Origin: an uncultured Pseudomonadales bacterium
Lineage (GTDB): Bacteria; Pseudomonadota; Gammaproteobacteria; Pseudomonadales; Pseudohongiellaceae
NCBI GenBank assembly: GCA_943789485.1
Contig: CALSUH010000005.1
Span: 248,001-312,000, forward strand
Reading direction: 5' to 3'
DNA: 64,000 nucleotides
Part shown: positions 43,862 to 60,313 of the stretch, one piece after another
Numbering within the stretch: position 1 is the first letter of the stretch
Layout: each line of letters begins with the position of its first letter
Translations under genes and position numbers: made by a program
Notes under the pieces: model-generated
What the model saw: only the letters and a program-made list of their open reading frames with translations
Told to the model about the DNA's origin: nothing
The model's database searches: none

Positions 43862-43888
43862 AACTAATTTCCTATTCTCAGATTAGAT

Positions 43889-44695
43889 TTAAAGGACATC
43901 ACCAAAAGCCTGCTTAATCTTCATAAATAACCAGCCACCCAAAAAGTAAGTAATTATTGAAACGGGAATTATTATTTGCAGATGAATAAAAGTTACCTGG
44001 CCAAGAAGAACGATCTCTCGATACAGGCTAACGAAGCTATGCATCGGGTTTAACAAAAATATATTTTGCTGAGCTTGGTCTTCGATAATAGATATTGGCC
44101 AAATTATCGGTGTCAGGAAAAACCAGATGGTGATGCCCAGCGCAACCAATTGTTGTAAATCGCGAAGGAAGACACTGAGCGCTGAGAGAATAGCCACCAA
44201 GCCCAGCGTGAATAAAAATTGGAAGAAGAAGATAACCGGCAGATAGAACCACATCCAATTCCAGTAACCCTGTGTCACTAAGTAAGCTAACAATATGCCG
44301 AAGCCTATGGCGTGTGTTAAATAGGGAATCACCGACCCCACAACGGGAATAATTTGTACGGGAAATTTCACCTTGGTGATCAACGGAGCCTTCTCGATTA
44401 ATAGGCCGGTGGATTTACCAATAGAGTCGGCAAAGGCAAACCAAGGCAGGTAGCCAACCATCATAAATACGACAAAGGTGCTCTCTTCAAACCCCACCGC
44501 GGCTCGCTGATTAAACAGAACACCAAACACGAAGGCATAGATCATGATGTGAATGATCGGCGTGATAATCAGCCACAGGAAACCGCCAACGGATGCCGTG
44601 AACTGGGCGAGGAAATCCTGTTTTGCGAAATTATGAAAGAGTCGGTAATGAGTGAACGGTGTCAGCATCCATTCACGTAGCAGAGTTAGTAACAT
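43889..44695 (-). CDS. wzm: Polysaccharide ABC exporter permease
   Basis: ABC-2-type permease (268 residues) with six hydrophobic segments and an amphipathic N-terminus (FHNFAKQDFLAQFTASVGGF). It forms the export channel with the Wzt subunit encoded next to it. Start ATG at 44695. The 170-bp gap to the divergent PIG-L gene must hold the promoter of this pair. Confidence 0.92.
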   Translation of the reverse strand: MLLTLLREWMLTPFTHYRLFHNFAKQDFLAQFTASVGGFLWLIITPIIHIMIYAFVFGVLFNQRAAVGFEESTFVVFMMVGYLPWFAFADSIGKSTGLLIEKAPLITKVKFPVQIIPVVGSVIPYLTHAIGFGILLAYLVTQGYWNWMWFYLPVIFFFQFLFTLGLVAILSALSVFLRDLQQLVALGITIWFFLTPIIWPISIIEDQAQQNIFLLNPMHSFVSLYREIVLLGQVTFIHLQIIIPVSIITYFLGGWLFMKIKQAFGDVL

Positions 44696-44865
44696 TCCCG
44701 ATCCAGTATTGTGTTTTGTGGTTATAAACGGAGTCTACTAATTAGTTCTATTGTGAGGCTGCGAATTTAACCATGAATCGTCTTAAAAAACTAAAAATTA
44801 CCGAGCCAAGCCTTTATAATCGAGACATTCAACAATATCCAGCAAGCTGATTTATACTGCTAACC

Positions 44866-45594
44866 ATGCTAAATCCGGAACACATACTCATCCCCTTCGA
44901 AACATCCGAGCTGCCAGGCGGACCCTGGCTAGTATTCGCACCCCACGCCGACGACGAGACCTATGGCATGGCCGGGAGCCTTCTCAAAGCCAGCGAGGAG
45001 GGCATTCAAACCCATCTAGTGGTTCTGACCGATGGAGCCTTGGGTGGCGATACTGAGAATCTTGTGGACGTGAGAAATAGCGAAGTTCATCGGGCAGCAG
45101 AAATACTAGGCATCAACAGCGTCGATAGCTGGCAACAGCCAGACCGTGGTTTGACCGTCAGCGAAGAGCTAGTAGGTAGGATTTGCGACAAGATTAGAGA
45201 AGTTGGTGCAGCTAGCGTTTTCTTCCCTGGGCCACTCGAGCCGCACCCAGATCATCGCACCACAGCTCTTCTTAGCTGGGCGGCGATACAGAAGTTAGGA
45301 AATGACTCAGCGGCTCCAAATGCCTATGCCTATGAAATTGGTGTGCAGAATCCGGTCAATCTTTTTATTGATGTCACAAAGCAGCGACCGTGCAAAGAAC
45401 AAGCTATGACAGTCTATGCAAGTCAGAACGGTGAGAATAATTATGAAGAACTGGTGCTGTCTTTGGATAAAGGACGCACTTTCACTCTCCCGGCGGAAGT
45501 TAGTCATGCAGAGGGTTTCTATCTGTACTCGAAAGAGCAGCTGAGGACGTCACTAAAGCAAGTCACGCACAATATTATCGATTTGTATTTGTGA
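44866..45594 (+). CDS. PIG-L/LmbE-family deacetylase
   Basis: Zinc-dependent N-deacetylase of the LmbE fold (242 residues). Metal and catalytic motifs are PHADDETYGMAGSLL near residue 26 and HPDHRTTALLSWAA near 128. Substrates of the family are N-acetyl sugars. Given the Wzm/Wzt neighbours it may trim a sugar during surface glycan synthesis (inference). It converges with the TolC-like gene with a 44-bp gap. Confidence 0.85.
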   Translation: MLNPEHILIPFETSELPGGPWLVFAPHADDETYGMAGSLLKASEEGIQTHLVVLTDGALGGDTENLVDVRNSEVHRAAEILGINSVDSWQQPDRGLTVSEELVGRICDKIREVGAASVFFPGPLEPHPDHRTTALLSWAAIQKLGNDSAAPNAYAYEIGVQNPVNLFIDVTKQRPCKEQAMTVYASQNGENNYEELVLSLDKGRTFTLPAEVSHAEGFYLYSKEQLRTSLKQVTHNIIDLYL

Positions 45595-45638: not shown

Positions 45639-46985
45639 CTAGGGCGCTTCCAGCCAGTTACCCACTTCCAACATATCCTCGGCTGTTAGAAGTCCGGTTT
45701 CCCGTTTGAGAGCAAGATTGTAGATGACATGTTCGTAGCGTGTTCTTTGCAACTCTCTCTGGGCGCGAAACTGGTCACGCAGAGCGTTCAGTACATCGAC
45801 ATTCGTCACAGTCCCTAATTCAAAGCCACGCTGTGCTGCAGTCGCTGACAGACTAGTAGACTCGAGTAGCTTTTGCGCCGCCTGGGTTCGAAGCTCACTG
45901 GACTGTACTTGCAGATAGGCTCTGCGCACCCGTTCACTCGCTTCCAATTGTTCTTGTTGCAGCTGATACTCGGCAATTAGTTGTTGGCTATGTGCTTCAC
46001 TGACCGCAGCCCGGTTGCTACCGCCGGCAAACAATGGAATAGAGACGTCTAGCCCTAGGTAGGTATTGTTATTCTGCGATACCGGTGCGTTCTCAAAACC
46101 GACGTTTGAATCTTGTTTTTGCACAATGAGAGAAACGCGTGGCATATAGGCGCCACGGCTTTCTGAAATGCGTTCGGTGGCTACCTGCAGGGCAAGCTCG
46201 CGTACCTTAATCTGATAGTTACCACGACGGGCCTGTTGTACCCAGTAGTTGATGCTGTTCTGTAGCGGAGGTATCTGAGCTGAATCGCTCAAACGAAATA
46301 GCGGCCCAGTAGCAAGACCGGTGATAGATCGCAGCGCTTCCTGACGCAGTGCTACTTCGCTTTGCAACTGCAGCTTCTCAGACTCTACTGCCGCCACGCT
46401 CGCCTGTGCCTGATACAGATCTGTTATCTGTGCTAGCTGGCGATCGTATAGGCTCTGAATCTGACTGAGTTGATTGTTCACTGCACTGAGCTCGGAATCC
46501 ATAGACGTCAGTGCATCGTCTGCTTGCAAGACGTTGAAGTATTTTTCAGCAACATCGGATAACAAGAAGGCCAGCTCCCCGAAATACTCAGCTTCCAATT
46601 GATCCTCGGTCAGCTTCGCCTGATTGCGCTGAGAAAAAACTTGCCAGTTAAAAAGCACCTGACTGAGCTGCAGTGTATAGCGTTCACCATCGAATGTTTG
46701 TAGTCCCGATTGGCCAGATACACGGCGTCGATTGTCCGATACGTTCGCGCTGGCATTCAATTGCGGTAGCAACCGCCCTTTGGCTGCACGCTCCCGGGCA
46801 GAGCTTATTTTCACGCTCTCTTCGGCGATCTTAAGCCTTGGGCTATAGTTAAGCGCGGCTGTAAAAAAATCTTCAAGCGTTGTGCCAACCGGGTCAAGTG
46901 CAACAAATTCTGCGGCAGCAATAGAGGATGACCAGCCACAAATAGTACCGAAGACCAAGCCGATTAGAGGTATTTTGTTTTTCAT
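45639..46985 (-). CDS. TolC-family outer-membrane efflux protein of a type I secretion system
   Basis: Outer-membrane channel (448 residues) with signal peptide (about 1-25) and two outer-membrane-efflux repeats: LNYSPRLKIAEESVK, NASANVSDNRRR and, in the second half, RRGNYQIKVRELALQVA, LDVSIPLFAGGSNRAAV, GTVTNVDVLNALRDQFRAQR. It is the last gene of the minus-strand operon after the ABC transporter and HlyD-like genes. The frame is intact. Confidence 0.92.
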   Translation of the reverse strand: MKNKIPLIGLVFGTICGWSSSIAAAEFVALDPVGTTLEDFFTAALNYSPRLKIAEESVKISSARERAAKGRLLPQLNASANVSDNRRRVSGQSGLQTFDGERYTLQLSQVLFNWQVFSQRNQAKLTEDQLEAEYFGELAFLLSDVAEKYFNVLQADDALTSMDSELSAVNNQLSQIQSLYDRQLAQITDLYQAQASVAAVESEKLQLQSEVALRQEALRSITGLATGPLFRLSDSAQIPPLQNSINYWVQQARRGNYQIKVRELALQVATERISESRGAYMPRVSLIVQKQDSNVGFENAPVSQNNNTYLGLDVSIPLFAGGSNRAAVSEAHSQQLIAEYQLQQEQLEASERVRRAYLQVQSSELRTQAAQKLLESTSLSATAAQRGFELGTVTNVDVLNALRDQFRAQRELQRTRYEHVIYNLALKRETGLLTAEDMLEVGNWLEAP

Positions 46986-46988
46986 TGG

Positions 46989-48320
46989 CTAGTCTTCGAT
47001 CAAACTGCGGGCGATGGAATTAGAGAGAGGTTTGAACAAATACTGTAGCAGTGTACGCGAACCACTGGAGATAAAGGCTTCAGCAGGCATGCCGGGTATC
47101 AGAGCCAGATCACTGAGGTCTTCCATGCTAGTGGAATTAACTTCGATGCGCGTTGTGTAGTAGGACGCACCCGTAAACTCGTCTATGAAACTGTCAGCAG
47201 AGATGCTAATTACAGTGCCAAAAATAGTGGGCACTGCGTTCCGACTGAATGTTGAAAAGCGTATTAACGCTTCCTGCCCTTCGCTTACGCGATCGATATC
47301 CAGCGGTGAGAGCCTTGCCTCAATAATTAGCTCTTCGCTCTGCGGGACGATCTGGGCAATCTCCGATGCGGCTATTACAACACCGCCCTCAGTGTGAGTC
47401 TGCATGCCGTTGACTCTGCCAGTAACCGGAGCGCGCACTACGGTTCTGCTGACCACATCCTGTAAGGCATTAATTCTTTCCACACTGTCTTTTAGCCGGC
47501 TCTGGGTTTCGGCGAGTTGACCGATGACATCATTGCGAAATTCTTTCTCTTGTTGAAGAATTTGCAGGCGTGTTTCACCAATCTGAATTTCGGTAGAAGA
47601 AATAGAGGCGGTTAGCTCAGCCGCCTCACCTTTAAAGCTAGCGGAGTTTCTCTCCAGCTCCCGAAGGCGCGTCCGGTTGGAGAACCCATCTTCAAGAAGT
47701 GCGCGCACGTCCTGCAGTTCATCATCATAGGATCTCGCCAATTCTTCTTTGCTCTCTTTCACGGCACGAAGACCAACCAAGCTTGAGTGCAGCTGTTCTA
47801 TCCGCTGCTGTAGTACTTCAACGCTGCCTTGAAGAGTGATTCGTCGAGCATCAAAAATCTGGCTCTGCGCATCTATTTCAGCGAAGGCATTAAAGTCACT
47901 ATTCGATAAAATTGGCGGATAGGAAACCGCGATCAGTCCATCTCGTTCGGCGATCAAGCGCGCTTCCACGGCCTTATCTGCAGCAAACAGCGTGTTAACG
48001 ATTTCCAACTGCGACAATGATTGGGTATTGTCCAGAATCAGCAAGGGGTCACCAGCGTTGACTAAATCGCCATTGCGAACTCTGATTTCACTCACGATCC
48101 CGCCTTCCAAGTGTTGAACTATTTTTTTGTAGGATTTAACGGTTACTGTGCCGGGCGCGTGGGCAGCACCTTCGATTGGTGCAAGTGTGGCCCAAAGTCC
48201 AAATACGCCGAAGACCAGGAAGAAAAGCCCAAGCCCGAATCGTTTGGGAGTTTCCATGCTGGTCAGCGCTTCCATCGAAGGATCGGTCGCGGGTCTTTTG
48301 ATTAGTTGTGTAAGGTCCAT
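46989..48320 (-). CDS. HlyD-family type I secretion adaptor
   Basis: Periplasmic adaptor (443 residues) that links the ABC transporter to the TolC channel. Cytoplasmic N-terminus, one membrane helix (about 29-48), the lipoyl half-domain VKSYKKIVQHLEGGIVSEI, a long coiled-coil hairpin (about 100-300) and the closing beta-barrel part with VVRAPVTGRVNGMQTHTEGG. It belongs to the PrtE/HlyD group. It ends 3 bp before the TolC-like gene. Confidence 0.93.
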   Translation of the reverse strand: MDLTQLIKRPATDPSMEALTSMETPKRFGLGLFFLVFGVFGLWATLAPIEGAAHAPGTVTVKSYKKIVQHLEGGIVSEIRVRNGDLVNAGDPLLILDNTQSLSQLEIVNTLFAADKAVEARLIAERDGLIAVSYPPILSNSDFNAFAEIDAQSQIFDARRITLQGSVEVLQQRIEQLHSSLVGLRAVKESKEELARSYDDELQDVRALLEDGFSNRTRLRELERNSASFKGEAAELTASISSTEIQIGETRLQILQQEKEFRNDVIGQLAETQSRLKDSVERINALQDVVSRTVVRAPVTGRVNGMQTHTEGGVVIAASEIAQIVPQSEELIIEARLSPLDIDRVSEGQEALIRFSTFSRNAVPTIFGTVISISADSFIDEFTGASYYTTRIEVNSTSMEDLSDLALIPGMPAEAFISSGSRTLLQYLFKPLSNSIARSLIED

Positions 48321-48386
48321 TACAAATTTATTTCCGGCTTAAGGTTGCTCAGTTATTCTCTAGCGCATGCAGGCGAATCAGCTGCT

Positions 48387-50128
48387 CTAATTCTGTTTGA
48401 CGATAGCTGGCCCTGGGGCCGCTTCAGTTTTTGGACGAGGCTGTTCTTTTAGCTTCGCCATCACTTCTTCTCTAGCACCGTAGAGAGCAACGGCTCCTGC
48501 TTGCAGTACTAAAATTTTGTCTACAATTCCAAGCAACAGAGTGCGATGAGTAATAACGATGACTGTGCTGCCGCTAGATTTCAGCTGATGAATTGTTACG
48601 GCCAGCTGTCTTTCGCCCTGATCATCGAGATTGGAATTCGGCTCGTCTAGAATGAGTAGGCATGGATTTCCATAAACCGCTCTTGCCAGGCCAATGCGCT
48701 GTCTCTGCCCGCCTGAAAGAACACCACCGGTTGCCCCTATCTGCGTGTCATAGCCATCGGGCAAATGCAAAATTAATTCATGTACGCCAGCTAACTTGGA
48801 TGCGGCGACGATTTTTTCGGAATCGATTTCACCGAATCGACAAATATTTTCTGAAATGGTGCCATCGAATAATTCGATGTCCTGCGGCAGGTAGCCTATA
48901 TGGGGCCCGAGCTTAGCTCGGTCCCAAGCTGCTACGTCTGCGCTATCTAGTCTTACCTTACCACCAACGGCAGGCCATATTCCCAATAAGGCACGAGCAA
49001 GGCTAGACTTACCCGACGCGCTGGGACCAACGATGGCCAGAGATTCACCCGCAGTAAGATTCAGAGAAACGTTTCTAACAGCTGGCACCTTGGAGCCGGG
49101 TGGGATTACCGTTGCCTTATCTACCGACAAATTCCCTTTGGGCGTTGGCAAATCCATTGACTCTTCAGTTGCCGGAATTTGTTCTAGCAATTCACCGAGT
49201 CGTTGATATTGAGATCGAGCAACGGTAAATCCTTTCCAGGTACCGACCAACATATCAATGGGCGCTAAGGCACGACCCAATAGTAATGAGCCCGCAATCA
49301 TCATGCCCGGCGATATTTCTTGTTGCAGAGCCAGCAGAGCACCCAGGCCCAGCAACATTGATTGCATAATCATTCTGAAAGTCTTCGAGACACTTGTCAG
49401 CACTGCCGCCTTCCGGCTGGCGTTGGTTTGTAGTTTCAACACCTCGTCAGAACGTATGCTCCTGTGCCTTACGGATATCCGCGGTCATACCCATTGCCGC
49501 AATCACCTCGGCGTTCTGAAGGCTTCGACCAATTTGGTTTCCTACCCAGTAAGCCTGTGAATTGGCTTCTTGGAGTTTCTTAGCTCGTAACTTTTTCGTT
49601 AACGTAAGCCAAAATCACCATCACGATGCCAGCGAATATTGCAGCCACCCCGAACCAGGGGTGGAACATAAACATGACCCCTACATAGATTGGGAACCAG
49701 GGAGCGTCAAAAAAGGCGAACAAGCCATTTCCAGTTAGAAATTGGCGCAGGCCGGATAAATCCGAGTTGGCTTGGGCATTAGCTTTGCCGCCGCTCAGCA
49801 GGGCGCGCTTGAATGTGGCCTCGAATACCCGCTCGCTTAGGTCTTTCTCTATACGATTACTGGCGCTGATGAGAATTCTGGAACGCACCCACTCAAACCC
49901 ACCAAGTGCCATCAATAGACAAACAAGCAGTATTGTTAGCATGGCAAGCGTCGACATGCTGCCGCTGCCAATTACGCGGTCATAGACCTGCAACATGTAG
50001 ATGATTGGAGCCAGCATCAGTATATTCACGGCAGCACTGAACACGCCAGCGTAGATGAAATAGCGCTTTATAGCCCAGAAGGCATCGTATAATTCCTGAA
50101 ACTGTTTCGTTTTCTTATTCTGTGACAT
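48387..50128 (-). pseudogene. PrtD-type type I secretion ABC transporter, frame broken twice
   Basis: Permease-ATPase that exports proteins with uncleaved C-terminal signals. The N-terminal part (49580-50128) has the membrane helices and MLAPIIYMLQVYDRV. The C-terminal part (48387-49442) has Walker A GPSASGKSSLARALLG, signature LSGGQRQRIGLARAV and Walker B LLILDEPNSNLD. Between them the frame shifts near 49585, where KKLQEANSQAYWVGNQIG reads on in another frame, and again near 49460. Correcting two indels gives one normal protein of about 580 residues. Sequencing error or recent inactivation; the other two exporter genes are intact. Confidence 0.88.
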
Positions 50129-50350
50129 ATGTACTACTTATTTTGGGCGATGACAAAAATCGACTGATCTAGCCGGTCAATCTTATGTCCGTGTGAGAAC
50201 GCTTGCCGTATTGGTAGCCACGCAAGTAATTTGGTATTAATTGGGTATCGGCTGGAGTTTTTCAACCCCCACTGATTAGTTAGGAATATTTTCTCAGCTA
50301 CGGTCGTGCCCATTTAAGGCGTATATTGCCGGAATTAAAGCGAGGAGGCA

Positions 50351-51061
50351 CTAAAGCTCCTTACTCCCCTCAGCTAGTTGTTTAAGAGCAGTCATGTCGG
50401 TGATCAATAAACTGGCTGGACCGGCGCGTTGCACAACTTTCTGATTCTGCAATTTCTGAAACACACGCGTGACGGTCTCTCGGCTCACGTTTAGCATGAT
50501 GGCGATCTCTTGATGGGTGGGCGGATTGCTTATAGCAGGAAGCTTATGAGGGATGCCGTTTCCTTCGGCTCCGTCGTCTACAAGGGACCACAGCTGGCAA
50601 CAGACGCGCTGTGATACGTTTGGCAGGCCAAGCAGTGTGCGCTGCTCAGTCATCTGCCGCACTCGCGCGGCGAGCTTGCGACCCAGCATATTCACCACGC
50701 TAGCATCACGCAGCATGACCTCTCTGATACTTTCAATAGGTATGTTTACAACTACACTGGGGTCAGGGCGATGATATATTCTGGCTGGTTGCCCTCATCA
50801 AAAAGCCCTAGTTCGCCGCAGAAGTCGCCAGGTTCGACAGAAATAGAGACCAACTTCGCGCCCATCGATGGTAAAATCGACGCCCTGCAGCCGCCCTTCA
50901 AACAGGAAGCACATGTGCTCTTCACGAACACCGGCATTGAGTACGATGCCACGCCGGGCAAACTTCTTAAGCGTAGACTGCCCGGCAAGCTGGTTAAGCA
51001 GCTTGCCAGGCAAGGACTTAAAAAGAGGGAAGCTGCTTAATAGTTCGGGGGTTACCGCCAT
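50351..51061 (-). pseudogene. Crp/Fnr-family transcription regulator, frame broken twice
   Basis: Cyclic-nucleotide-type regulator. The cNMP-binding domain starts at ATG 51061 (SSFPLFKSLPGKLLNQLAG) and reaches GELGLFDEGNQPEYIIALTP in a second frame. The helix-turn-helix is in a third piece, with recognition helix SRETVTRVFQKL, which keeps the R-E-x-x-x-R contacts of E. coli CRP. The frame shifts near 50840 (one extra base) and near 50760 (one base missing); corrected length is about 237 residues. The cAMP-contact arginine (R82) is not conserved. A CRP-like operator lies 100 bp upstream. Confidence 0.85.
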
Positions 51062-51161
51062 GAACTTCTGATCCAGAGGTCACTGGGCGGCGCTGTAGTC
51101 GCCGTTGCCGGTCATTATAAGTGCTTGAAACCTAATAGCAAATGGGAGTATTTTGGCTTCA

Positions 51162-51177
51162 TGTGATTGGCGTCACT
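51162..51177. promoter_or_regulatory. CRP-type operator upstream of fecR and the crp-like gene
   Basis: TGTGATTGGCGTCACT matches the CRP consensus TGTGA-N6-TCACA at nine of ten half-site positions. It lies between the divergent Crp-like gene and fecR. A -10-like hexamer, TATCTT, begins at 51199, 37 bp after the operator start, so the operator centre would be near -41.5 for a start close to 51211. Confidence 0.75.
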
Positions 51178-51198
51178 TGCAGTTAATCGGGTTTAGAG

Positions 51199-51204
51199 TA
51201 TCTT
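51199..51204 (+). promoter_or_regulatory. Candidate -10 element for the fecR operon
   Basis: TATCTT, 37 bp from the start of the CRP-type operator to the start of the hexamer. No good -35 is visible, which fits an activator-dependent class II promoter. The same spacing occurs before the secreted-protein gene. Confidence 0.5.
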
Positions 51205-51274
51205 CTCCAGCTAACTAGGCAAGTTGTGTTTCCGCTCCATGACATCCTTCCTAGGAAACAAGAGAATTAAGACA

Positions 51275-52702
51275 ATGAAACTAAGCAAAATAGCCACTAC
51301 AGCTAGGCCCAATGGGTTCTTCGGCAGATTGATTTCAATCTTTGGTCGATTTGCGGCTGTATCTGCCCTCTTTCTTTGGAGCGTTTCAGCCTTCAGCTAG
51401 TGCGGCAGGTAGCAGATCGGCGGTCGTGGGCGAAGTCAGCCTGGTACTCGGTAAAGCCTACTCTGTTGAGCGAAGGTAAGCCTCGGAAGCTGGTCGAAGA
51501 CGGGCAGCCAGATTCGCGCCAGCGACCAGATTTGACCCAAACCAATGGCCATGTGCATATCCGCTTTGTAGACGAGGCTCTGGTTAGTGTGAGGCCAGAC
51601 AGTCAGCTTGAAATTATCAGCTATGACTATGATTCAGAGCATCCTGAAAAGTCCTCAATCAAATTCAATCTGATTGAAGGTATCGCTCGCTCTATTTCTG
51701 GAGAAGGCGCAAAGGCTGCGCGTTCTCGCTATCGCCTAAATACGCCAATCGCTGCTATCGGGGTTCGGGGTACCGACTTTGTGGTTAGCGTTACCGAGCA
51801 GAGCACGCGCGCACTGGTGAATCAGGGGGCTATTGTAATGGCGCCTTATTCAGCGGAATGCACTGCCTCGGCTATCGGGCCCTGTGCTACTAATGCGGTG
51901 GAGCTAACAGACAGCGCATTGCAGATGCTTGAATTTGAAGGCACAGCGCGGGTGCCGCGATTGATTCCGGCACCCCATGAAAGAGAGCCGGGCACTCATG
52001 CGCGAAGAAGTTCAGCTTGCCTCTAGCAGATGACACATCTCAAGACGACGCGGTTGTCGCTGACAACGATGCCTACCTGGAAAATGTCACTGCATTAAAG
52101 GCTACAAAGCAAGTGGCTGACGATTGGCCGAGACTTGGCGACCGAACTTGGCGATGATTGCTCGACTTCACTCCCAAAGCACAGCTCGCGAGCTCTGAAT
52201 TGACGAATCGCCAGATGGCATGGGGTCGTTGGGCTTCTGAGCCCAGTGCGCAGGAGCGCATAACGCTGAGCTACGCAGAGGCGAGAATCTGGCCGCAAGG
52301 TTACCGTGGGCAATAGTGAATACGCTTTGTTTCGAACCGAAGGCCCCCGGCCTCAGGTTGAGCAGGGCTTGGGCCCAGTCAGCTTTTCTCTGGCTAGTGC
52401 GCAGGCGTTTTACAATTCCGAAAGCGGTATCGTGGCGATGCAAGTGAACAGAGGAAATCTCGCTATCGATTTTGATAAAAGTAGTTTCACGACTGAGCTA
52501 AACCTGAATCATATCAGCACGGGGTTTGTCGACTTCACGGCAAGCGGCACTATTTCTGACCGGGGCTATTTCAATGCAATCGCCGATACTCAGCGCCTAG
52601 GCCGGGGCGGTTACTACCGATGGTAGCGAGGCTGGCTACTTTTTTGAGAAACAATTGGAAAGCGGCAGTATCAATGGTCTAACGCTTTGGGATGCTAAAT
52701 AG
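51275..52702 (+). pseudogene. FecR-domain envelope protein, multiple frameshifts
   Basis: N-terminal signal or anchor (RLISIFGRFAAVSALFLW), then a FecR domain with the hallmark TPIAAIGVRGTDFVVSV in the frame that is open over 51376-52026, and a C-terminal region that ends GSINGLTLWDAK just before 52702. At least eight one-base indels break it, near 51390, 51474, 51510, 51536, 51985, 52025, 52135, 52290 and 52605; each repair joins sensible sequence. FecR-domain proteins of this type are exported and often precede CHASE2 cyclases. The stop is 2 bp before the cyclase ATG. Confidence 0.8.
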
Positions 52703-52704
52703 CC

Positions 52705-54742
52705 ATGCAGCTCTCCGCCCTTTCAACACTACTAGCAAATTCTTTGCAAAAATTACCGCCTATACGGCCTCGTGATGGGCGCTTGCTGGTATTGCTTTTG
52801 GCTGGGATTTTGACTGTTGCTTTAAATTTCGCTTTTAGTGATGCGCTTAAAACCGTGGAAGAGCGTCTCGGTGTGATGGGTTGGACCTTAACTACAGACG
52901 ACGCTATCGAAGAGCGCATCACATTGGTTACTATCGATGAAAAAAGCTTGGCCGAAGTCGGCCCCTGGCCTTGGCCTCGGCAGGAACTTGCGCGCCTGGT
53001 CAATGCCATTGATGAGGCAGGCGCCCAACTACAAATTCACGATGTGTTTTTGGCGGAGCCCAAGGACGGAGATGCTGGATTAGTCGCTGCCTTGGAGTCT
53101 TCGCGCGGGGCGGTGCTAGCGCAGGTGCCGATTCTCCAGTCCGAGCAGACGGCGCGCGTGGGTGCTATGTCGCATGCGCTGACTGCTGTTAGCTGCGGTG
53201 CACAGCCGCCTGGAGCGAGCTCTGGAATATCGCTGCCTAGCACCCAAAATTATATCGCCAGCCACGCTGGGTTTTCAGCAATTTCCAAGGGCCATATCAC
53301 GCCTATCGTGGCGAGCGACGGTTCTATACGTCAGTTTCCAGCATTAATTTGCGTCGACGGCATGCCCTACCCTGCACTCGCTATTAGCGCTTTATTAGAG
53401 GCAACCAATAGCGTGGATTGGAACGCCAGCGTACGCGCTGACACGTCATTTTTTGGCCCCGAATTCCGCTTACAGCTCGATGCCTACCCCGGCCTTAACA
53501 TTCCGCTTGATAGCCAGGGCAATATTCGTATTTCCTATAAGCAAGCGCCGAATAATTTCCGGGCAGTGTCGGCATCCGATGTAATGTCAGGGAATATAGA
53601 GCCGGGACTATTTGAAAACACTTGGGTATTGGTTGGCGCAACCGCATTGAGTATGGGTGATATCGTTCCCACGCCCTACAGTGGAGCGACTCCCGGCGTC
53701 GAGTTACAGGCGCGCATTTTGAGTAGTTTGCTGGATGCACAGATGCCCTATACCCCGCGTTCCGCAAACTGGCTATTGGGGTTTATTAGCATTTGCATTG
53801 CCTTGGTTTTACTTAAACTGGCTGCAGCGCCAGCTCGCGTGTCCGCCTACGGGCTGCCTATCGCAGGCGTAGTTTTCCCTGTGCTTGTACTTACACTGCA
53901 TATTCAGATGCTCAGCAGCAGTGAAGTCTGGATGGGATGGTTGTTTCCCGCACTGTATAGCCTGCTCGCTGCAAGCTTACTGCTGCTGTTAGAGCAGAGC
54001 CGTGTACGAGTCGAGCGTAGTCGGGTGTATGGCAACCTAAGCAGCTATCTGCCACTGGATATTGCAAAGGAGATTGCTTATACCTTGCCCAGTTCGGCGA
54101 TTAACGCAAAGCGTTGTGATGTCACTCTATTGAGCGCTGATCTTCGAAATTTCGCCGCCTTTAGTGAATCACGACCCCCTGAAGAGTCGGCCGCGGTATT
54201 ACATTTTTTCTTTGTGCGCGCCACAGCAATCGTCGAGCAGCACGGCGGCCGCGTACACGAATTTAAGGGAGACAGTGTCCTGGCAGTTTGGGACGGACAG
54301 CATCGCGAGGCAGCGCTACAAGCGTTGCTAGCAGCGCAGGGTATGCAAGAGGCGATTGATCAAGACATGTTAACGCCGCAGTCGGCCAGTCACTCTGGAG
54401 CCACTGGCCTTGGGTATTGGCATTGAGCAAGGGCCTGCTTTAATTGGTTCTATAGGGCCTGCACATCGCCGCAGCCACTCTCTATTGGGTGACACAGTGA
54501 CCATTACCTTACGTGTTCAAGAATTAACACAAGAGCTAGCGCAGCCCATCCTGATTGGGGAATGTGCGGCACGCCAGCTTAATGACCAACAGCTTATCTC
54601 CCAAGGCAGCTATTTGCTAAGTGGCTTGAGAATTCCCCATACCTTGTTCGCTCCGGCAATTTCAGAGCTGGCGCAAGGCAAGAAGAAAAGCACTAAACGG
54701 ATGCCGCCTAAGCTAAAAGTGGTTGCCGGGAACAGAGATTGA
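52705..54742 (+). pseudogene. CHASE2-domain adenylate/guanylate cyclase, one frameshift
   Basis: Membrane receptor cyclase. After an N-terminal helix (about 28-48) comes an extracytoplasmic CHASE2 domain (about 60-340, with VTIDEKSLAEVGPWPWPR), then three membrane helices (about 350-430) and a class III cyclase domain. The metal aspartates are in LLSADLRNF and HEFKGDSVLAVW. The frame is clean to 54385, then shifts once, and continues as LEPLALGIGIEQGPALIGSIG to 54742. Corrected length is about 678 residues. Product, cAMP or cGMP, cannot be told; the cyclase could feed the Crp-like regulator next to it. Confidence 0.88.
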
Positions 54743-54910
54743 GCGCCCCATTTCTTGTGACTTCTTAATCTTCTCGATTATTAGCCTAGTGTGGCTGTTA
54801 CAGTGAATTGCTGTGTTGTATCAATCGATGTGATCCCAGATAATCCCGCCATGTTTCATAATCGGCTTTTACTTGGCAAACCCAACGTCCTAACAGGGCT
54901 GTCAGGCGCT

Positions 54911-56240
54911 ATGCCGCGATTTTTTTGCACTGCACTTCTCTTTATCGTCTCTTTTGGCCTTGTAACCGTATCATCGAATGCCAGCGCAGAATGCCCTGAC
55001 CTGACGCCTTACTACCCCCGGTGCCGATGTTAATTGGCCCTCGCTAAGCCAGCAGCTCGAACCGATGTCCTCAGAATGTCTGGAAAGCTCAGAGTTTTAC
55101 GCATTGCTCGGCGCTGCAAAGCTGAATAGCGGGGATATAGCGGATGCTTTTGAGTCGCTGGAGCGTGCCCTCTTGTTAGAGCCTGAAAATGGCGCGGCCC
55201 AAATGGACTATGCGCAGGCACTTTACTTACAGGGCCAGTTGTTCTCGGCACTGGAGATCAATGACGCTCTGCTTGCGCGTGAAGATCTGCCAAGCAACCT
55301 TGAGGGAATAGTTCTGCAGCGCCAAAAATCCTGGCGCGCACTCACCACTGAGCGCAGCGGCCAGCTAGATATACTGGCAGGCCACGATAACAATCTAAAT
55401 GGTGCGCCGGGCCCGAGTCAACTGACTTTGACGCTCTCCGGTGACCCCATCGTGCTGCCCCTGAACAAAGAATTCAGGCCCCAAAGCGGCCCGTATATGA
55501 ATTTCCGCTTGGGGGGGCGCTATCGACAGCTGGGCCCGAATTATCAGCATAACTGGCTAACGGAGGTAAGGGGCAGGCTAAGCGAGGATTCCGAGTCTGA
55601 TTTGCTGCAATTCGATAGTCGCTACTCCTTTATCAGGCCAGGGCGCAGACAGAGCTGGCAAGTAAACACCGGCATTACGCATTTGCAATTTGGTGGCAGT
55701 TCTCTCTATACCGGCTTGGACGTCAGTGCTCGGTATCAGCGGGCCACCGGCTTAAGTTGCAAGCCCTATTATCAGATGGCTACACAGTATCAATTATTTC
55801 ACAATCAGCGTCAGCTTACTGCGCTTGAAAGCAAGGCCGGTGTTGGCATGAACTGCCCGAGAAGCAGTAGCTGGGGCAATTACCAGGTCAGCACAGAGTT
55901 AAGCCTGCTATCCAACACGGGAATTGAGCCTGAGCGTCCTGGCGGCAATAGAGACGGCTGGCTGGCGAGCATCGACTGGCAAATAGATTTGCCGTTAGGT
56001 GAATTTCGCAGCCAGCTAGGTTACACCGAACTTAATGACACAGATGGCTACAGCCCGCTGTTGGCCGATGGCGCGCAGCGTTGGCTGCGTCGAAGTTATG
56101 TGCTGCTGCAGTACCGCAGGCCGCTAGTTGAGGGCACGACTTTGCTTGTTAATCTGTTCCATCAAGACCAGCACAGCAATTTGGAGCTATTCCAGAGCAT
56201 TGATAGCACCATAGAAATAGGCATTAGCCTTGCCTTGTAG
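54911..56240 (+). pseudogene. TPR plus beta-barrel outer-membrane protein, one frameshift
   Basis: Signal peptide (FFCTALLFIVSFGLVTVSSNASA), a short TPR-like helical part (ALLGAAKLNSGDIADAFESL, then LEPENGAAQMDYAQALYLQG), and a C-terminal part of alternating strands ending in the outer-membrane-type IEIGISLAL. The layout resembles Slam (DUF560) and related barrel translocators, but I cannot assign it to a family. A single extra C near 55017 in a run of C breaks the frame: removing it joins PYYPGADVNWPS. An upstream in-frame ATG is at 54851. It follows the cyclase by about 110-170 bp. Confidence 0.75.
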
Positions 56241-56440
56241 GGAATTCTCGCCGAATAGTATTTTTAGAAACTCTTTCAAAAATAACGCGTTAGCGCCTAA
56301 GGTTAAGTGAAAATAGAGTATTATTCAGTTGTCATGGGTCCCAATGTTAGGTAAACTTCCCCAGTTAATTGCACAGCTGCCGACACAAAGTCAGCAACTA
56401 GTGCGATGCTCGAGTACAGCACTAGGGTAATTTCTTTTGG

Positions 56441-56456
56441 TGTGATTGGAATCACA
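56441..56456. promoter_or_regulatory. Perfect CRP-type operator before the secreted-protein gene
   Basis: TGTGATTGGAATCACA is a perfect TGTGA-N6-TCACA dyad and shares TGTGATTGG with the operator at 51162. A -10-like TATGCT begins 37 bp downstream of its start, again placing the operator centre at about -41.5. Confidence 0.85.
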
Positions 56457-56477
56457 AACCAGAGGCACTGCCTTAAG

Positions 56478-56483
56478 TATGCT
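56478..56483 (+). promoter_or_regulatory. Candidate -10 element for the secreted-protein gene
   Basis: TATGCT, 37 bp from the operator start, would place transcription start near 56490, about 78 bases before the ATG at 56568. The leader ends in an AAGGAG ribosome-binding site, 6 bases from the ATG. Confidence 0.5.
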
Positions 56484-56567
56484 TGCAATACCGATATGTG
56501 GTCATAAGCTATTTTTGGCATGTCTCGATCGGAAACAACAAAACTAGAACATTTCAAGGAGTCATAA

Positions 56568-58758
56568 ATGGCTACAGCAGCAGAACACACAGAGTATTAT
56601 TCAACTGGTAGTAGGTATGGTAGATGCCGCCCCCGGTGCAGACATTCTTGCCGAACTAGAAGCAACTGGTTGACGGCTAGGCATGACAATTGAAGAGGTG
56701 GCGATAGCCATCACTGCAAATCCAGCTTGGAGTGGCGATACGGGTCTTTTCCCTGACTACTTGCCAAACGCACAATTCGCAGAGGCCTTTCTGACGCAAC
56801 TTCTTAGTGAGGAAGTCACAGCAGACTACCTGGAAGCAGCTATTGTCGAAATGACAGCTTCGCTAAATGCTGGCGATTCTCGCGGTGCAACTATAAACGC
56901 CGCCATCGACGCACTTGCGGCCACCGATTCAGCAGATGAGGATCTAGGTAATGCCGCAGCTGCCTTGGCTAACAAGACAGAGGTTGCTACCTACTACTCA
57001 GTAGAGCAAATGCAAAGTTCTGCCGATCTTGACGACCTAATGGCAGTAGTCATGGACGTAACTAGCGACGAAGACGCGGTAGCAGACGGCGAAACTGCTG
57101 TTGATGATGCCATTGCAGCTGAGACGCCTCTACTTTCTAACCTTGCCGATTTGGCAGACGCACAAGCAGCTGTTGATGCGTTCTTGCTTGCAGCAGGCCA
57201 AACTGAAGCGACTGAAGCTGCTGATCCACCTACCGATGTTCCAACACTTACTGCAACTTACGGCGCGGCTCTTATCGCTACAGATGGCGAGGTCGCTGGT
57301 GCTTATGCCGCGGCTACACCGACAGTTCAGGCGGCGCTACTTGCCGCTCAACAAGCTGTTAATGACGCTGCCCGAGATGATTTGCAAGATGACGTAGACG
57401 ATGCTAACGATGAAATTGATGACGTAACAGGTTTGGCTGCGGCTGCGGCTGCTGCTACTTCTGCCGCGGATGCAGCAGCTGCTGCAGCAGTCGGGAATGC
57501 TCTAAACGATATTCAATTAATCGCCGCCGTGGCTAATTACGATCTTCAACTTACTGCTAACGTTGGTGTTGTAACAGCCTCTGGCGCTGGTATCGTGACA
57601 GCCGTTGCTGATGCTGGAGCTGCAGCCCTGATCCAAACAAACACTGGTGGATCGCTTGAACTAGTATTCGGTATTACCGAAACAACTAACCCTGGCGTTA
57701 CAGCGTTGCTGGCTGCATATGTATCTAATAATGCGGCACAATCAGCTGTCAATACAGCTAATGCGACTTCGGCTGTGCTTACTCAGGCAGCAGCATCGCT
57801 TGACCTTGGTGATCAAGCTAACACTGCCACTGCTCTTGCTAATCTTACTGCTGGTTTCACTATAGGAACTCCTGCCGCTGCAACCGCGAGCAATGCAGAA
57901 GTTGTTGCGGAAGTTGCTGCATTAACTGCAGCGGAAGACGCCGGTCAGGAAGCTTTATCTGATGACATTGGCGACATTGCGTTCGACACTGATAACGCCA
58001 CCACTCAAGGACTTCTTACAGCCCTTACTGCTGCTGCTGGTGCTTTTATCACCGGCGCGGAAGCAACTGCTATTAACAACGCTTTTGCCGCAGTGACTGT
58101 GAGCGATCAAGCCACAACTGATCTTGCTATTGCAGGTGCACAGGCAGTTTTAGGAGTTGCCGTTAATGCGGGTGGTGCTCTAGAACTATTTACCGACCTT
58201 ATCGCCGCATATGACGCAGAAGAATTGGGTGATACGCCATTGATTGATGATCTAGACGACGCAGAAACCGCTCTAGATACTCATGTGACCACCGTTGATG
58301 AGCCTCTTGCAGAGGCAGTTGCTGACGAAGTAGCGGCTGGCACTGCAGTTTTGACAATCACAGGGCTTAATCTAGCTCTAGCTGCAGCCGAGGCGGCGTT
58401 AGCTGAGCAGGATGTCAGTGTTTCAACAATTGTCGCGGAACAAGATGCTACTGATGATAACGACGCATACCTTCTTGGTACAGCTGGCGGCACTATCGAT
58501 GGATTTGGTGACGATGGCGACGATGTGATTTACATTGGTGAAGATGCTTATGTAATCAATATTGGCGACGTAGATGAGGGCGATGATACTGTTCTCGAAG
58601 TCTTCTTGGACGAGTCTGCTGGCGGCGATACAACACTTAGCATCGAAACTTCTGTATTTGGCGGCAGCGCGGCCGAACCAGAAGTAATTGTGGTTGTACT
58701 AACAGGTGTAGCAGCAGCCGATATCTCTATTGACACTGATGGATTCATTGTCGCCTGA
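56568..58758 (+). pseudogene. Acidic, cysteine-free type I secreted protein (S-layer or adhesin-like), N-terminus broken
   Basis: The likely start ATG 56568 follows AAGGAG. MATAAEHTE then shifts frame near 56595, and a TGA at about 56671 interrupts ATG*RLGMT; deleting three single bases there restores T-V-D-A-G-M and joins the long frame from 56683. That frame (691 residues) has one Lys, two Arg, no Cys and very many Ala, Asp and Thr. It carries an N-terminal helical domain of a kind found in type I substrates (GMVDAAPGADILAELEA, ANKTEVATYYSVE), poly-Ala helices, and a C-terminal part with GFGDDGDDVIYIG and a tail ending DTDGFIVA, consistent with an uncleaved C-terminal export signal. Confidence 0.75.
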
Positions 58759-58925: not shown

Positions 58926-58999
58926 TTTGTAGAAGGTCAAACTAAAGCGTAGAATTATCCGTCTAATGAGTAGTTACTTAATTTCCTCTATTAATCTGA
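58926..58999 (+). repeat. Left copy of a 74-bp direct repeat flanking the RAYT unit
   Basis: About 74 bp, starting TTTGTAGAAGGTCAAACTAA, are repeated at 60225-60298 with about ten substitutions and no gaps. The two copies lie just outside the RAYT unit on both sides. Confidence 0.85.
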
Positions 59000-59004
59000 T
59001 AAAC

Positions 59005-59080
59005 GGGACACTAACAACTTAATGGCGTGCTGAGAGTTTCTTGACTACAGTTATTGCATGCCAAGGATTGGTCGATTACA
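59005..59080 (+). repeat. Partial copy of the RAYT left end and first codons
   Basis: GGGACACTAACAACTTAATGG and the following sequence repeat the segment at 59099-59181, including ATGCCAAGGATTGGTCG, the first codons of the transposase gene (MPRIGRLH). The copy lacks one 8-bp CAACTTAA unit and its frame ends after 16 codons. It is a truncated duplicate of the element end. Confidence 0.9.
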
Positions 59081-59098
59081 TATACTGAGGGAAAGAGA

Positions 59099-60197
59099 GG
59101 GACACTAACAACTTAACAACTTAATGGCGTGCAGAGAGTTTCTTGCCTACAGTTAATGAATGCCAAGGATTGGTCGTTTACATCTGCCAGGTGGGGTTTA
59201 CCACCTTATGGGTCGAGGTCTCGAGCGTCGGAATATCTTTCGTGAAGAAGTAGACAAGCGAGATTTTCTTGAGCGCTTTGGTAAAGGACTCGATCGCTAC
59301 GAAATGCAATGTTTCGCCTGGGTCTTGATGTCGAATCACTACCACCTTTTGGTTAGAGTCCGCGATAAACCGTTGAGCAAACTAATGGCCTCGGTGCTGG
59401 GTGGTTACGCAAGCGCCTACAATAGACGAAACAGGCGAGTGGGTTATGTGTTTCAGAATCGTTACAAGTCTATTCTCTGCGACGCGGACAATTATCTTCT
59501 AGAACTAATTCGCTATATTCATTTAAACCCCCTTCGGGCTGGCATGTTGCAAGACCTAGATGCATTGGGTCGTTACCGTTGGGCGGGTCATGCTGGGGTA
59601 TTAGGCAGACACAAACAAAAGTGGCACGAAGTGAATGAGGTTCTAGGCCTTTTTGGACGCAAGGTCGGGACAGCGAGAAGAACCTATAATCGTTTTATTA
59701 GTGAAGGCTTAAACAAGGCACGACGGGAGGATTTTGGTGGAGGTGGGTTAATTCGTAGTCACGGGGGCTGGGAATCGTTGTCCGGATTTAGGAAAGAGCA
59801 CCAATTTTGCATTGGCGATGAACGTATCCTCGGTGAGAGTGATTTTGTACAGCAAGCGCTGGGCGATGATGTGTTGGCAATTACCGCTAAAGCTTCATTG
59901 GAGCAGCGTGGTTGGACATTGGAAAGATTAATCCAGCGCATTAGTAGCAACTTTGGAGTTAGTGAAGCGATGCTTTTATCAAAAGCACGATCAAATGACC
60001 TTTCGGTGGTGAAATCTCTTATTAGTTATTGGGGGACACAGGAAATCGGGCTTAGCTGTCGGGAAATCGCTACACGCCTAAACATCAGCCAGCAAGCCGT
60101 TTCCAACTGGGTTGTGAAAGGAGAAGCGTACTGCCAAAGGGGAAAACTGGTTTTTGATGAAGAGTTGGACTTAAGTTGTTAAATTGTTAGTGTCCCC
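59099..60197 (+). mobile_element. RAYT unit bounded by inverted REP-like ends
   Basis: A 1.1-kb unit whose left end (59099-59124) and right end (60171-60197) are inverted copies of the GGGACACTAACAACTTAACAA arm found twice near engB; one mismatch separates the two ends. It contains one gene, a REP-associated tyrosine transposase. Such enzymes mobilise or maintain REP palindromes of matching sequence. The hairpin elements at 29967 and 30843 keep the ends but hold a 35-bp spacer in place of the gene. Confidence 0.88.
59160..60182 (+). CDS. REP-associated tyrosine transposase (RAYT, Y1_Tnp family)
   Basis: HUH-type single-strand nuclease of 340 residues. The N-terminal Y1 domain (about 1-130) has MPRIGRLHLPGGVYHLMGRG, the two-histidine motif SNHYHLLVRV near residue 58, VFQNRYKSILC and the catalytic tyrosine segment YLLELIRYIHLNPLRAGML. 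The C-terminal 180 residues hold a DnaA-like or helix-turn-helix end (REIATRLNISQQAVSNWVV), as in the longer members of the family. The last codons and the TAA stop lie inside the right REP-like end, as is also the case for engB. Confidence 0.92.
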   Translation: MPRIGRLHLPGGVYHLMGRGLERRNIFREEVDKRDFLERFGKGLDRYEMQCFAWVLMSNHYHLLVRVRDKPLSKLMASVLGGYASAYNRRNRRVGYVFQNRYKSILCDADNYLLELIRYIHLNPLRAGMLQDLDALGRYRWAGHAGVLGRHKQKWHEVNEVLGLFGRKVGTARRTYNRFISEGLNKARREDFGGGGLIRSHGGWESLSGFRKEHQFCIGDERILGESDFVQQALGDDVLAITAKASLEQRGWTLERLIQRISSNFGVSEAMLLSKARSNDLSVVKSLISYWGTQEIGLSCREIATRLNISQQAVSNWVVKGEAYCQRGKLVFDEELDLSC

Positions 60198-60224: not shown

Positions 60225-60298
60225 TTTGTAGAAGATCAAACTAAAGCGTAGAATTGTCCGTCTAACCAGTAGTTACCTAATGTCCTCTATTGATCTAT
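60225..60298 (+). repeat. Right copy of the 74-bp direct repeat
   Basis: The match to 58926-58999. It lies 27 bp after the right end of the RAYT unit and runs up to the start of the next gene. Confidence 0.85.
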
Positions 60299-60313
60299 AA
60301 GCGGAAGAGCAAT

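What the first reader, a model, noticed from the sequence alone, without database searches (positions are those of the whole stretch)
45639..58758. Candidate cyclic-nucleotide-controlled type I secretion system for a surface protein
Side by side lie a complete TolC/HlyD/PrtD exporter, a Crp-type regulator, a FecR-domain exported protein, a CHASE2 receptor cyclase, a TPR/beta-barrel outer-membrane protein and a large acidic cysteine-free protein with type I substrate features. Crp-type operators sit in front of two of the units. Each family is known; a linked sensor-cyclase-regulator-exporter-substrate module is something I do not recognise as described. Inference: CHASE2 input raises a cyclic nucleotide, the Crp-like protein activates fecR-cyclase and the substrate gene, and the exporter places the protein on the cell surface.
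Basis: partly seen in the sequence, partly recalled or inferred. Interest (0 to 1): 0.75.

Follow-up and report, generated by a model that had tools for sequence, protein, structure and literature searches.

The report
Self-regulated surface-protein export locus
In a group of mostly uncultured bacteria, one conserved stretch of DNA holds a protein-export machine, a gene regulator, a predicted envelope-sensing enzyme and a fast-changing protein that is predicted to be exported to the cell surface, and matching DNA control sites stand before both the sensor genes and the exported-protein gene, so the cell likely turns the surface protein on and off with its own private signal.

Summary
Relatives have intact copies. 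In 33 same-genus loci, crp-fecR-cyclase-barrel and the exporter stay together in every contig that reaches, and they co-occur across 61 genomes (Fisher p 5e-10 to 8e-14; one real exception). In 28 loci (484 kb), 48 of 54 near-perfect Crp sites lie in two places: the crp/fecR spacer (28 of 28 loci) and just after the barrel, before the substrate (20 sites, 18 loci). In G056, with no detected canonical CRP, the chromosome's only perfect site precedes the displaced substrate; G021 and G032 follow this only partly or not. cAMP control is not supported: the regulator lacks the phosphate-contacting Arg-Ser (32 of 32 distinct loci), and the cyclase has Glu for Lys and lost the catalytic Asn (31 of 31; 0 of 12 other CHASE2 cyclases). 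The TPR/barrel protein is a distant Slam/T11SS-type protein; the FecR protein is modelled with a T11SS-cargo-like barrel. Best reading: a private envelope-to-promoter loop controlling a type I secreted surface protein.

The parts
45639..46985 (-). TolC-type outer-membrane channel, intact
   Evidence: Pfam OEP 165 bits; NCBIfam type_I_sec_TolC 223.8, just under its cut-off 225.2
46989..48320 (-). HlyD-type adaptor, intact
   Evidence: NCBIfam type_I_hlyD 382 bits, cut-off 209
48387..50128 (-). PrtD-type ABC exporter, frame-broken here, intact in relatives
   Evidence: intact relative L036 passes TIGR01842
50354..51061 (-). Crp-type regulator, frame-broken here; relatives mostly 232-255 aa with FCGELxxFDxxxQPE-type sequence in place of the canonical Arg-Ser pocket
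51162..51177 (.). Operator 1, TGTGA-N6-TCACT (9 of 10), in the divergent crp/fecR spacer
   Evidence: a 9-of-10 site in 33 of 33 related loci with this spacer, plus the window
51275..52703 (+). Exported FecR-domain protein (464-552 aa ORFs in relatives) with a C-terminal barrel modelled like T11SS cargo; frame-broken here
52705..54742 (+). CHASE2 class III cyclase (653-703 aa in relatives), one frame break here
54803..56240 (+). TPR plus 14-strand outer-membrane barrel (model), distant Slam/DUF560 relative; N-terminus broken here (intact ORF 55065-56240)
56441..56456 (.). Operator 2, perfect TGTGA-N6-TCACA, about 128 bp before the substrate start
56569..58758 (+). Predicted type I substrate, acidic and cysteine-free, fast-evolving; N-terminus broken here (ORF 56683-58758)

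Best explanation
The locus is a conserved gene module (host family likely Pseudohongiellaceae) in which a local Crp-type regulator likely binds two conserved operators and would so control, together, a predicted envelope-sensing operon (FecR protein, CHASE2 cyclase, Slam-like barrel) and the gene of a fast-evolving protein predicted to be exported by the adjoining type I exporter. Shown by sequence: the gene linkage, the two operators, the substrate-side operator at the displaced gene in G056, and the altered active-site residues. Inferred: (1) the Slam-like barrel delivers or holds the FecR protein, whose C-terminal barrel resembles T11SS cargo, at the outer membrane; (2) the FecR protein reports envelope or surface state to the periplasmic CHASE2 domain; (3) the cyclase responds with a nucleotide that is probably not cAMP; (4) the local Crp-like protein, which lacks the canonical Arg-Ser and keeps a CRP-type recognition helix, reads that signal and switches its own sensor operon (9 of 10 site) and the substrate (perfect site); (5) TolC-HlyD-PrtD exports the substrate to the surface, closing a feedback loop.
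For: Linkage: of 33 same-genus loci (chosen by cyclase homology), 28 hold crp, all 28 divergent from fecR; 27 of 27 that reach further have PrtD-HlyD-TolC beside it, two rearranged (L052 inverted, L053 spaced) yet linked. Across 61 genomes HlyD is in 33 of 34 with the cyclase and 6 of 27 without; in five of those six the contig ends inside the module. Operators: 54 sites of 9 or 10 in 28 loci (483,543 bp): 28 in the crp/fecR spacer, one per locus, 20 (in 18 loci) within 500 bp after the barrel, 6 elsewhere; mononucleotide shuffles give 0.38 of 29 loci against 29 of 29. All fecR-side sites are 9 of 10 with the same end base changed. After the barrel, 20 of 26 loci with over 400 bp have a site, 19 perfect; five of the other six have different genes there and the sixth (L045) ends after 638 bp. 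G056: one perfect site in 3.43 Mb, 120 bp before a displaced 1,060-aa RTX-bearing substrate, and no canonical CRP hit. Exporter type. Slam link: hhalign 98.3%, barrel alone 92.4%, controls 0.1-2.2%. FecR C-terminus: 49 of the 50 VIA-align rows shown are NHBA, fHbp, TbpB, LbpB, HphA/hemophilin or HpuA chains, many of them repeats of one protein.
Against: No expression, binding, messenger or secretion data. A canonical CRP with intact Arg-Ser and a similar recognition helix exists in the window's own genome and could share the operators; most of the 17 genomes scanned have further perfect sites elsewhere (1 to 15 each in all). In G021 only one of three substrate copies has a site, and in G032 the substrate-like ORFs in 13.6 kb have none. 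The barrel fails Pfam SlipAM directly, and Foldseek and VIA-align list BcsC, CymA/OmpG porins and TPR domains, no Slam. The FecR model averages pLDDT 61 and its Foldseek hits are weak (best E 8e-5, TM about 0.2), with lipocalins close behind. G024 carries the exporter without regulator or sensor. Co-occurrence counts are not phylogenetically independent. The copy in this window may be inactive.
Confidence: 0.6

Rival explanations
1. The operators belong to the genome's canonical cAMP-CRP (Vfr-type) regulator, and the local Crp-like gene is a bystander or a modulator.
For: A Vfr-like protein with an ERSAW pocket and SREMAGR helix is encoded in the window's genome and in G012; TGTGA-N6-TCACA is the CRP consensus (recalled); other perfect sites exist in most genomes scanned.
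Against: G056, G021, G017, G029, G032 and G036 show only the local regulator at E 1e-10, yet all six keep the fecR-side operator; G056 was also checked by HTH family and keeps a substrate operator. A canonical CRP scoring below that E-value is not excluded in the other five. In G000 only two perfect sites were found genome-wide (83.8% complete).
Confidence: 0.17
2. The cyclase is a dead, nucleotide-sensing or purely scaffolding protein and the regulator responds to another cue, so no diffusible messenger is involved.
For: Transition-state Asn absent in 31 of 31 and purine-position Lys replaced by Glu in 31 of 31; regulator lacks Arg-Ser in 32 of 32 distinct loci.
Against: Both metal aspartates and the catalytic Arg are kept in 31 of 31, and the Pfam cyclase domain is still recognised (41 bits, cut-off 21.9); Glu at that position is the guanylyl-cyclase state (recalled).
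Confidence: 0.3
3. Two independent systems (FecR-CHASE2-barrel sensor; type I exporter with substrate) merely sit side by side.
For: FecR, CHASE2 and TPR/barrel genes cluster without this exporter in other Gammaproteobacteria and, with a phosphodiesterase, in Campylobacterota (PMC9239204); G024 has the exporter alone.
Against: Shared operator type, linkage kept through inversion and insertion, and genome-wide co-occurrence.
Confidence: 0.1
4. In this genome the module is decaying, or its frame breaks are unpolished assembly error.
For: Frame-changing gaps only in the six genes from prtD to the substrate, none in the other compared genes of the window.
Against: Does not apply to the intact relatives, so it bears on the window and not on the system.
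Confidence: 0.5

Closest known systems
CHASE2 adenylate cyclase / FecR outer-membrane protein / TPR protein / phosphodiesterase cluster of Campylobacterota (PMC9239204, section 9 read)
   Same: CHASE2 cyclase, FecR-domain protein and TPR protein encoded together and proposed as one pathway
   Different: Adds its own Crp-like regulator with operators, a type I exporter and a substrate; cyclase active site altered; no phosphodiesterase seen among the module genes scanned
PrtD/HlyD/TolC type I secretion with RTX surface proteins or S-layers (RsaA, SlaA; recalled)
   Same: PrtD-type exporter beside a large acidic, cysteine-poor protein, with RTX-type motifs in one G056 and one G021 copy
   Different: Sensor operon and regulator in the same locus
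Slam / type XI secretion (PMC12282271, passages; PMC9090332, listing only)
   Same: TPR plus 14-strand barrel protein (Slam architecture recalled) encoded next to a protein with a modelled C-terminal barrel; PMC12282271 describes a C-terminal eight-stranded barrel as the cargo hallmark
   Different: The cargo-like protein carries a FecR domain and sits with a cyclase; 'FecR' and 'cyclase' do not occur in that paper's main text
CgrA and Clr, Crp-family cGMP or cAMP/cGMP receptors (PMC10127613, two passages)
   Same: Crp-family regulator with cGMP as a possible ligand
   Different: Clr contacts the ligand with R95 and S96; the module regulator lacks this pair
LapA retention module (PDB 5ix9; NCBIfam NF033682)
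   Different: Below the family cut-off of 50 and not on the predicted secreted substrate itself

Membership tests
PrtD-type type I secretion system | ABC exporter and adaptor of the type I subfamilies | tested here: met
   TIGR01842 739 (cut-off 510, relative L036); TIGR01843 382 (cut-off 209, window)
PrtD-type type I secretion system | Outer-membrane factor of the type I TolC subfamily | tested here: inconclusive
   Pfam OEP 165 bits, but TIGR01844 223.8 against a cut-off of 225.2
PrtD-type type I secretion system | Substrate secreted through it | not testable with these tools
   Only sequence features: acidic, Cys-free, similar C-terminal tail in many copies; RTX-type motifs in the G056 and G021 copies
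cAMP receptor protein (CRP) | cNMP-binding domain plus CRP-type HTH | tested here: met
   PF00027 54.1 bits, PF13545 52.9 bits (relative L036)
cAMP receptor protein (CRP) | Arg-Ser of the phosphate-binding cassette (R95/S96 in Clr; R82/S83 of E. coli CRP, recalled) | tested here: not met
   34 of 34 sequences (32 distinct loci; two contigs counted twice) have PE or SE instead; the two canonical CRPs in hand have RS
Class III adenylate cyclase | Two metal aspartates and catalytic Arg | tested here: met
   31 of 31
Class III adenylate cyclase | Adenine-position Lys and transition-state Asn (roles recalled) | tested here: not met
   Glu in 31 of 31; Thr/Ser/Gly/Ala in 31 of 31; Lys and Asn in 12 of 12 other CHASE2 cyclases, taken from 12 of the 16 non-module loci fetched
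Slam / T11SS outer-membrane protein | TPR plus 14-strand barrel (recalled architecture) | tested here: met
   AlphaFold pLDDT 87.5, 14 long strands by DSSP
Slam / T11SS outer-membrane protein | Match to PF04575 at its cut-off | tested here: not met
   No hit for three module barrels at E up to 10; the family profile matches a profile of four SlipAM-passing proteins at 98.3%
T11SS cargo | C-terminal eight-stranded barrel | tested here: inconclusive
T11SS cargo | Slam-dependent surface exposure | not testable with these tools
   Needs an experiment
Campylobacterota CHASE2-FecR-TPR cluster | Includes a cAMP phosphodiesterase | tested here: inconclusive
   None among the module genes scanned; not every neighbour was scanned

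The most novel reading that the evidence does not exclude
A private, cAMP-insulated second-messenger circuit in which a T11SS-delivered FecR surface sensor drives a re-specified CHASE2 cyclase, whose non-cAMP product is read by a Crp protein with a rebuilt pocket to switch a type I secreted coat: two secretion systems joined by one messenger loop.
Probability: 0.3. Interest if true: 0.88.

Novelty: new variant of a known kind. Interest (0 to 1): 0.72.

Why it matters
It links a type I exporter, a Slam-like barrel and a sensor cyclase to one regulator in a single conserved locus. It suggests that FecR-domain proteins next to Slam-family barrels are a class of T11SS cargo-like sensors, which would give an input side to CHASE2 cyclases. 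It also offers a test case for how a Crp/cyclase pair may become insulated from cAMP inside a cell that keeps an ordinary CRP. Named Pseudohongiella species exist, and P. acticola encodes the barrel, so it could be tested.

Tried and rejected
Rejected: a complete exporter in this window (frame breaks). Rejected: direct membership of the barrel in Pfam SlipAM. Considered and not kept: BcsC-type polysaccharide porin for the barrel; Foldseek ranks BcsC first, but its fit is poor (TM 0.36, 14.8 A), and the VIA-align list is led by porins; no Slam chain was listed in either, which shows nothing. Led nowhere: Rfam and tRNA scans; the window's substrate in Pfam and two relatives' substrates in NCBIfam (the G056 copy matches RTX-type models far below their cut-offs); the whole-protein substrate search in 58 genomes finds only 7, as the middle of the protein diverges. 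Non-module CHASE2 loci (L069-L084): FecR neighbours pass Pfam in L071, L076 and L077 and fall short in L070 (selected proteins only); tblastn found only weak ABC-ATPase hits (L070, L072, L073) and Crp-like hits (L075, L082), no locus with both. The barrel at E 1e-5: 33 of 61 same-genus genomes and 0 of 36 from other families. Class-level profile: 33 of 369 genomes including the window's own, mostly TPR-region matches; I fetched 20 of the 35 other places: 14 of 20 had a FecR or CHASE2 hallmark nearby by motif scan; 8 FecR ORFs from 7 loci were scanned and all 8 pass Pfam. Of 10 barrels scanned (6 of them picked for their FecR neighbour, so a biased set), 6 pass SlipAM and 5 of those 6 have an adjacent FecR gene. 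Papers: searches listed no description of this linked module (open-licence PMC only).

A regex count of substrate starts caught only 11 and was replaced, which auto-detected the substrate ORF in 16 of the 20 site-bearing loci (not in L041, L043, L048, L050). The crp-start script missed nine loci; four (L044, L049, L090, L100) were read, the other five hold no crp. In the cyclase comparison L079 and L082-L084 were left out: no suitable ORF picked, or matched in the cyclase domain only. L003 and L005 repeat the contigs of L037 and L038, so 34 Crp sequences are 32 distinct loci.
Full report
Observation. All families named are present at the stated places. The window lies in G000, a MAG of 3.67 Mb in 32 contigs, 83.8% complete. 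Its nearest named relatives are MAGs NORP90, NORP348 and NORP350. Several named members of the barrel family are Pseudohongiella or Pseudohongiellaceae, others only "SAR86 cluster" or "Gammaproteobacteria", so I place the organism in Pseudohongiellaceae (Pseudomonadales) as likely. Relatives have intact genes, so the system is best studied there.

Neighbourhood. The cyclase was found in 34 of 61 same-genus genomes at ortholog level, E 1e-46 or better. I fetched the surroundings of the 33 besides the window. Wherever the contig reaches, the order is TolC-HlyD-PrtD-Crp, then divergent FecR-cyclase-barrel: crp beside fecR in 28 of 28, exporter beside crp in 27 of 27. L052 has the exporter inverted and L053 has it spaced, yet both keep the linkage. 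Across the 61 genomes: barrel 32 of 34 with the cyclase against 1 of 27 without; HlyD 33 of 34 against 6 of 27; Crp 32 of 34 against 3 of 27 (Fisher p 8e-14, 5e-10, 1e-11; the species are related, so these are not independent trials). In five of the six HlyD-without-cyclase genomes (G006, G010, G020, G048, G058) the contig ends inside the module and the cyclase was not found elsewhere, so they are uninformative; G024, a single contig, is the one real case of the exporter alone. At E 1e-5 the barrel was not found in 36 genomes from 36 other families of the order.

Operators. A scan for TGTGA-N6-TCACA gave one site of 9 of 10 in the crp/fecR spacer of every locus that has it: 28 of 28, five further loci (L090, L091, L092, L099, L100) and the window. 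The changed base is always the end base of the same half. After the barrel, 20 of 26 loci with over 400 bp of sequence have a site, 19 of them perfect. An acidic ORF with the substrate N-terminus was auto-detected behind 16 of these 20, 127 to 240 bp downstream (not in L041, L043, L048, L050). Of the six without a site, L046, L047, L051, L052 and L053 have other genes there and L045 ends after 638 bp. In 483,543 bp of 28 loci only 6 of 54 sites lie elsewhere. The best test came from G056, a single 3.43-Mb chromosome with no substrate beside the barrel: it has exactly one perfect site, 120 bp before a displaced substrate with seven RTX-type motifs. Other moved copies agree less well: in G021 one of three has a perfect site, and in G032 the substrate-like ORFs read have none. 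Perfect sites are not exclusive to the module: the 17 genomes scanned hold 1 to 15 each, G024 without the module most. G056 shows no canonical CRP: one Crp hit, and an FNR-sized protein besides the local one (that it is FNR is my inference). The local regulator has a CRP-type recognition helix (SRETVTR or close variants). I therefore assign the sites to it, with canonical CRP as a rival where one exists.

Signal chain. The regulator has the cNMP-binding domain but PE or SE where canonical CRPs have Arg-Ser, in 34 of 34 sequences from 32 distinct loci; in Clr these residues contact the ligand's sugar and phosphate (PMC10127613, figure legend). The cyclase keeps both metal Asp and the Arg but has Glu for Lys and Thr/Ser/Gly/Ala for Asn in 31 of 31, whereas 12 of 12 other CHASE2 cyclases compared (of 16 loci fetched), two of them from the same genus, are canonical. 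The two changes occur in the same module. I read this as a re-specified, private signal (inference); a dead cyclase is the main rival. The window's genome also keeps an ordinary CRP, so insulation from cAMP would make sense.

FecR and the barrel. The barrel protein is modelled as a TPR domain plus 14 strands (pLDDT 87.5). It misses Pfam SlipAM directly, but its profile matches a profile of four TPR/barrel proteins that pass SlipAM at 98.3% (barrel alone 92.4%; reversed, shuffled and unrelated controls 0.1-2.2%). The FecR protein model is weak overall (pLDDT 61) but mostly better over 330-462. There, 49 of the 50 VIA-align rows shown are chains of NHBA, fHbp, HphA/hemophilin, TbpB, LbpB and HpuA, with many entries for the same few proteins; these are Slam/T11SS-type surface proteins (partly from PMC12282271 passages, partly recalled). 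The remaining row, 5ix9, matches the FecR domain. VIA-align only re-aligns Foldseek's own candidates; in Foldseek the five hits under E 0.001 are TbpB/LbpB, and lipocalins follow closely. Elsewhere in the class, of 20 related TPR/barrel loci fetched (of 35 listed), 14 have a FecR or CHASE2 hallmark nearby by motif scan. Of 10 barrels scanned, 6 chosen for a FecR neighbour, 6 pass SlipAM and 5 of those 6 have an adjacent FecR gene on the same strand. Control loci of 152,657 bp had no FecR hallmark. In G077 (another family) a SlipAM-passing barrel, a FecR protein and a canonical CHASE2 cyclase are neighbours. A FecR/CHASE2/TPR cluster with a phosphodiesterase is already described in Campylobacterota (PMC9239204, section 9); that section names no Slam link, regulator operators or exporter for it.

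Exporter and substrate. PrtD (of a relative) and HlyD (of the window) pass the type I subfamily cut-offs; TolC falls just short. The substrate is acidic, cysteine-free or nearly so, and fast-evolving: 49% identity to the copy in NORP90, where the other module genes and flanks are mostly 87-95% (the broken Crp 70%; some genes farther downstream 72-81%). It has a conserved N-terminus, and many copies share a C-terminal tail; the longer RTX-bearing copies end differently. Its function is unknown to the libraries searched; a surface coat or adhesin is inference.

Verdict. Known parts, new combination, with a testable new idea (FecR proteins as T11SS-like cargo feeding a CHASE2 cyclase).

Noticed in passing
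48387-56683: Frame breaks are concentrated in this stretch and absent from the other compared genes of the 64-kb window; either unpolished assembly or decay of the whole module in this genome.
   Followed up: partly
58990-60182: A gene with the look of a REP-associated tyrosine transposase (340 aa, by eye), preceded by two similar copies of a short repeat; present at the same place in NORP90 at 88% identity.
   Followed up: no
60290-61057: Small protein, possibly exported, ending in a DVPxGxRxxxTPFGDRxV-like tail, kept downstream of the substrate in several relatives (L049, L101, L108); function unknown.
   Followed up: no
42644-45594: Genes that look by eye like an ABC-2 type polysaccharide exporter pair and a PIG-L-like deacetylase flank the module in most relatives, so the region may be a cell-surface island.
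   Followed up: partly
L077:6354-10910: In another family a SlipAM-passing TPR barrel, a FecR protein and a canonical CHASE2 cyclase are neighbours, suggesting a wider FecR/Slam/CHASE2 association.
   Followed up: partly
L036:9003-10397, FecR domain, residues 50-150: The FecR domain resembles the LapA retention (cell-surface anchoring) domain 5ix9 in fold and weakly in sequence.
   Followed up: partly
L046:8610, L047:234, L051:8623: In one subclade without a detected canonical CRP, another 9-of-10 site lies on the crp/prtD side of the module.
   Followed up: no
L102, L103: G021 carries three substrate-like genes on two contigs, so the substrate can be multicopy.
   Followed up: partly
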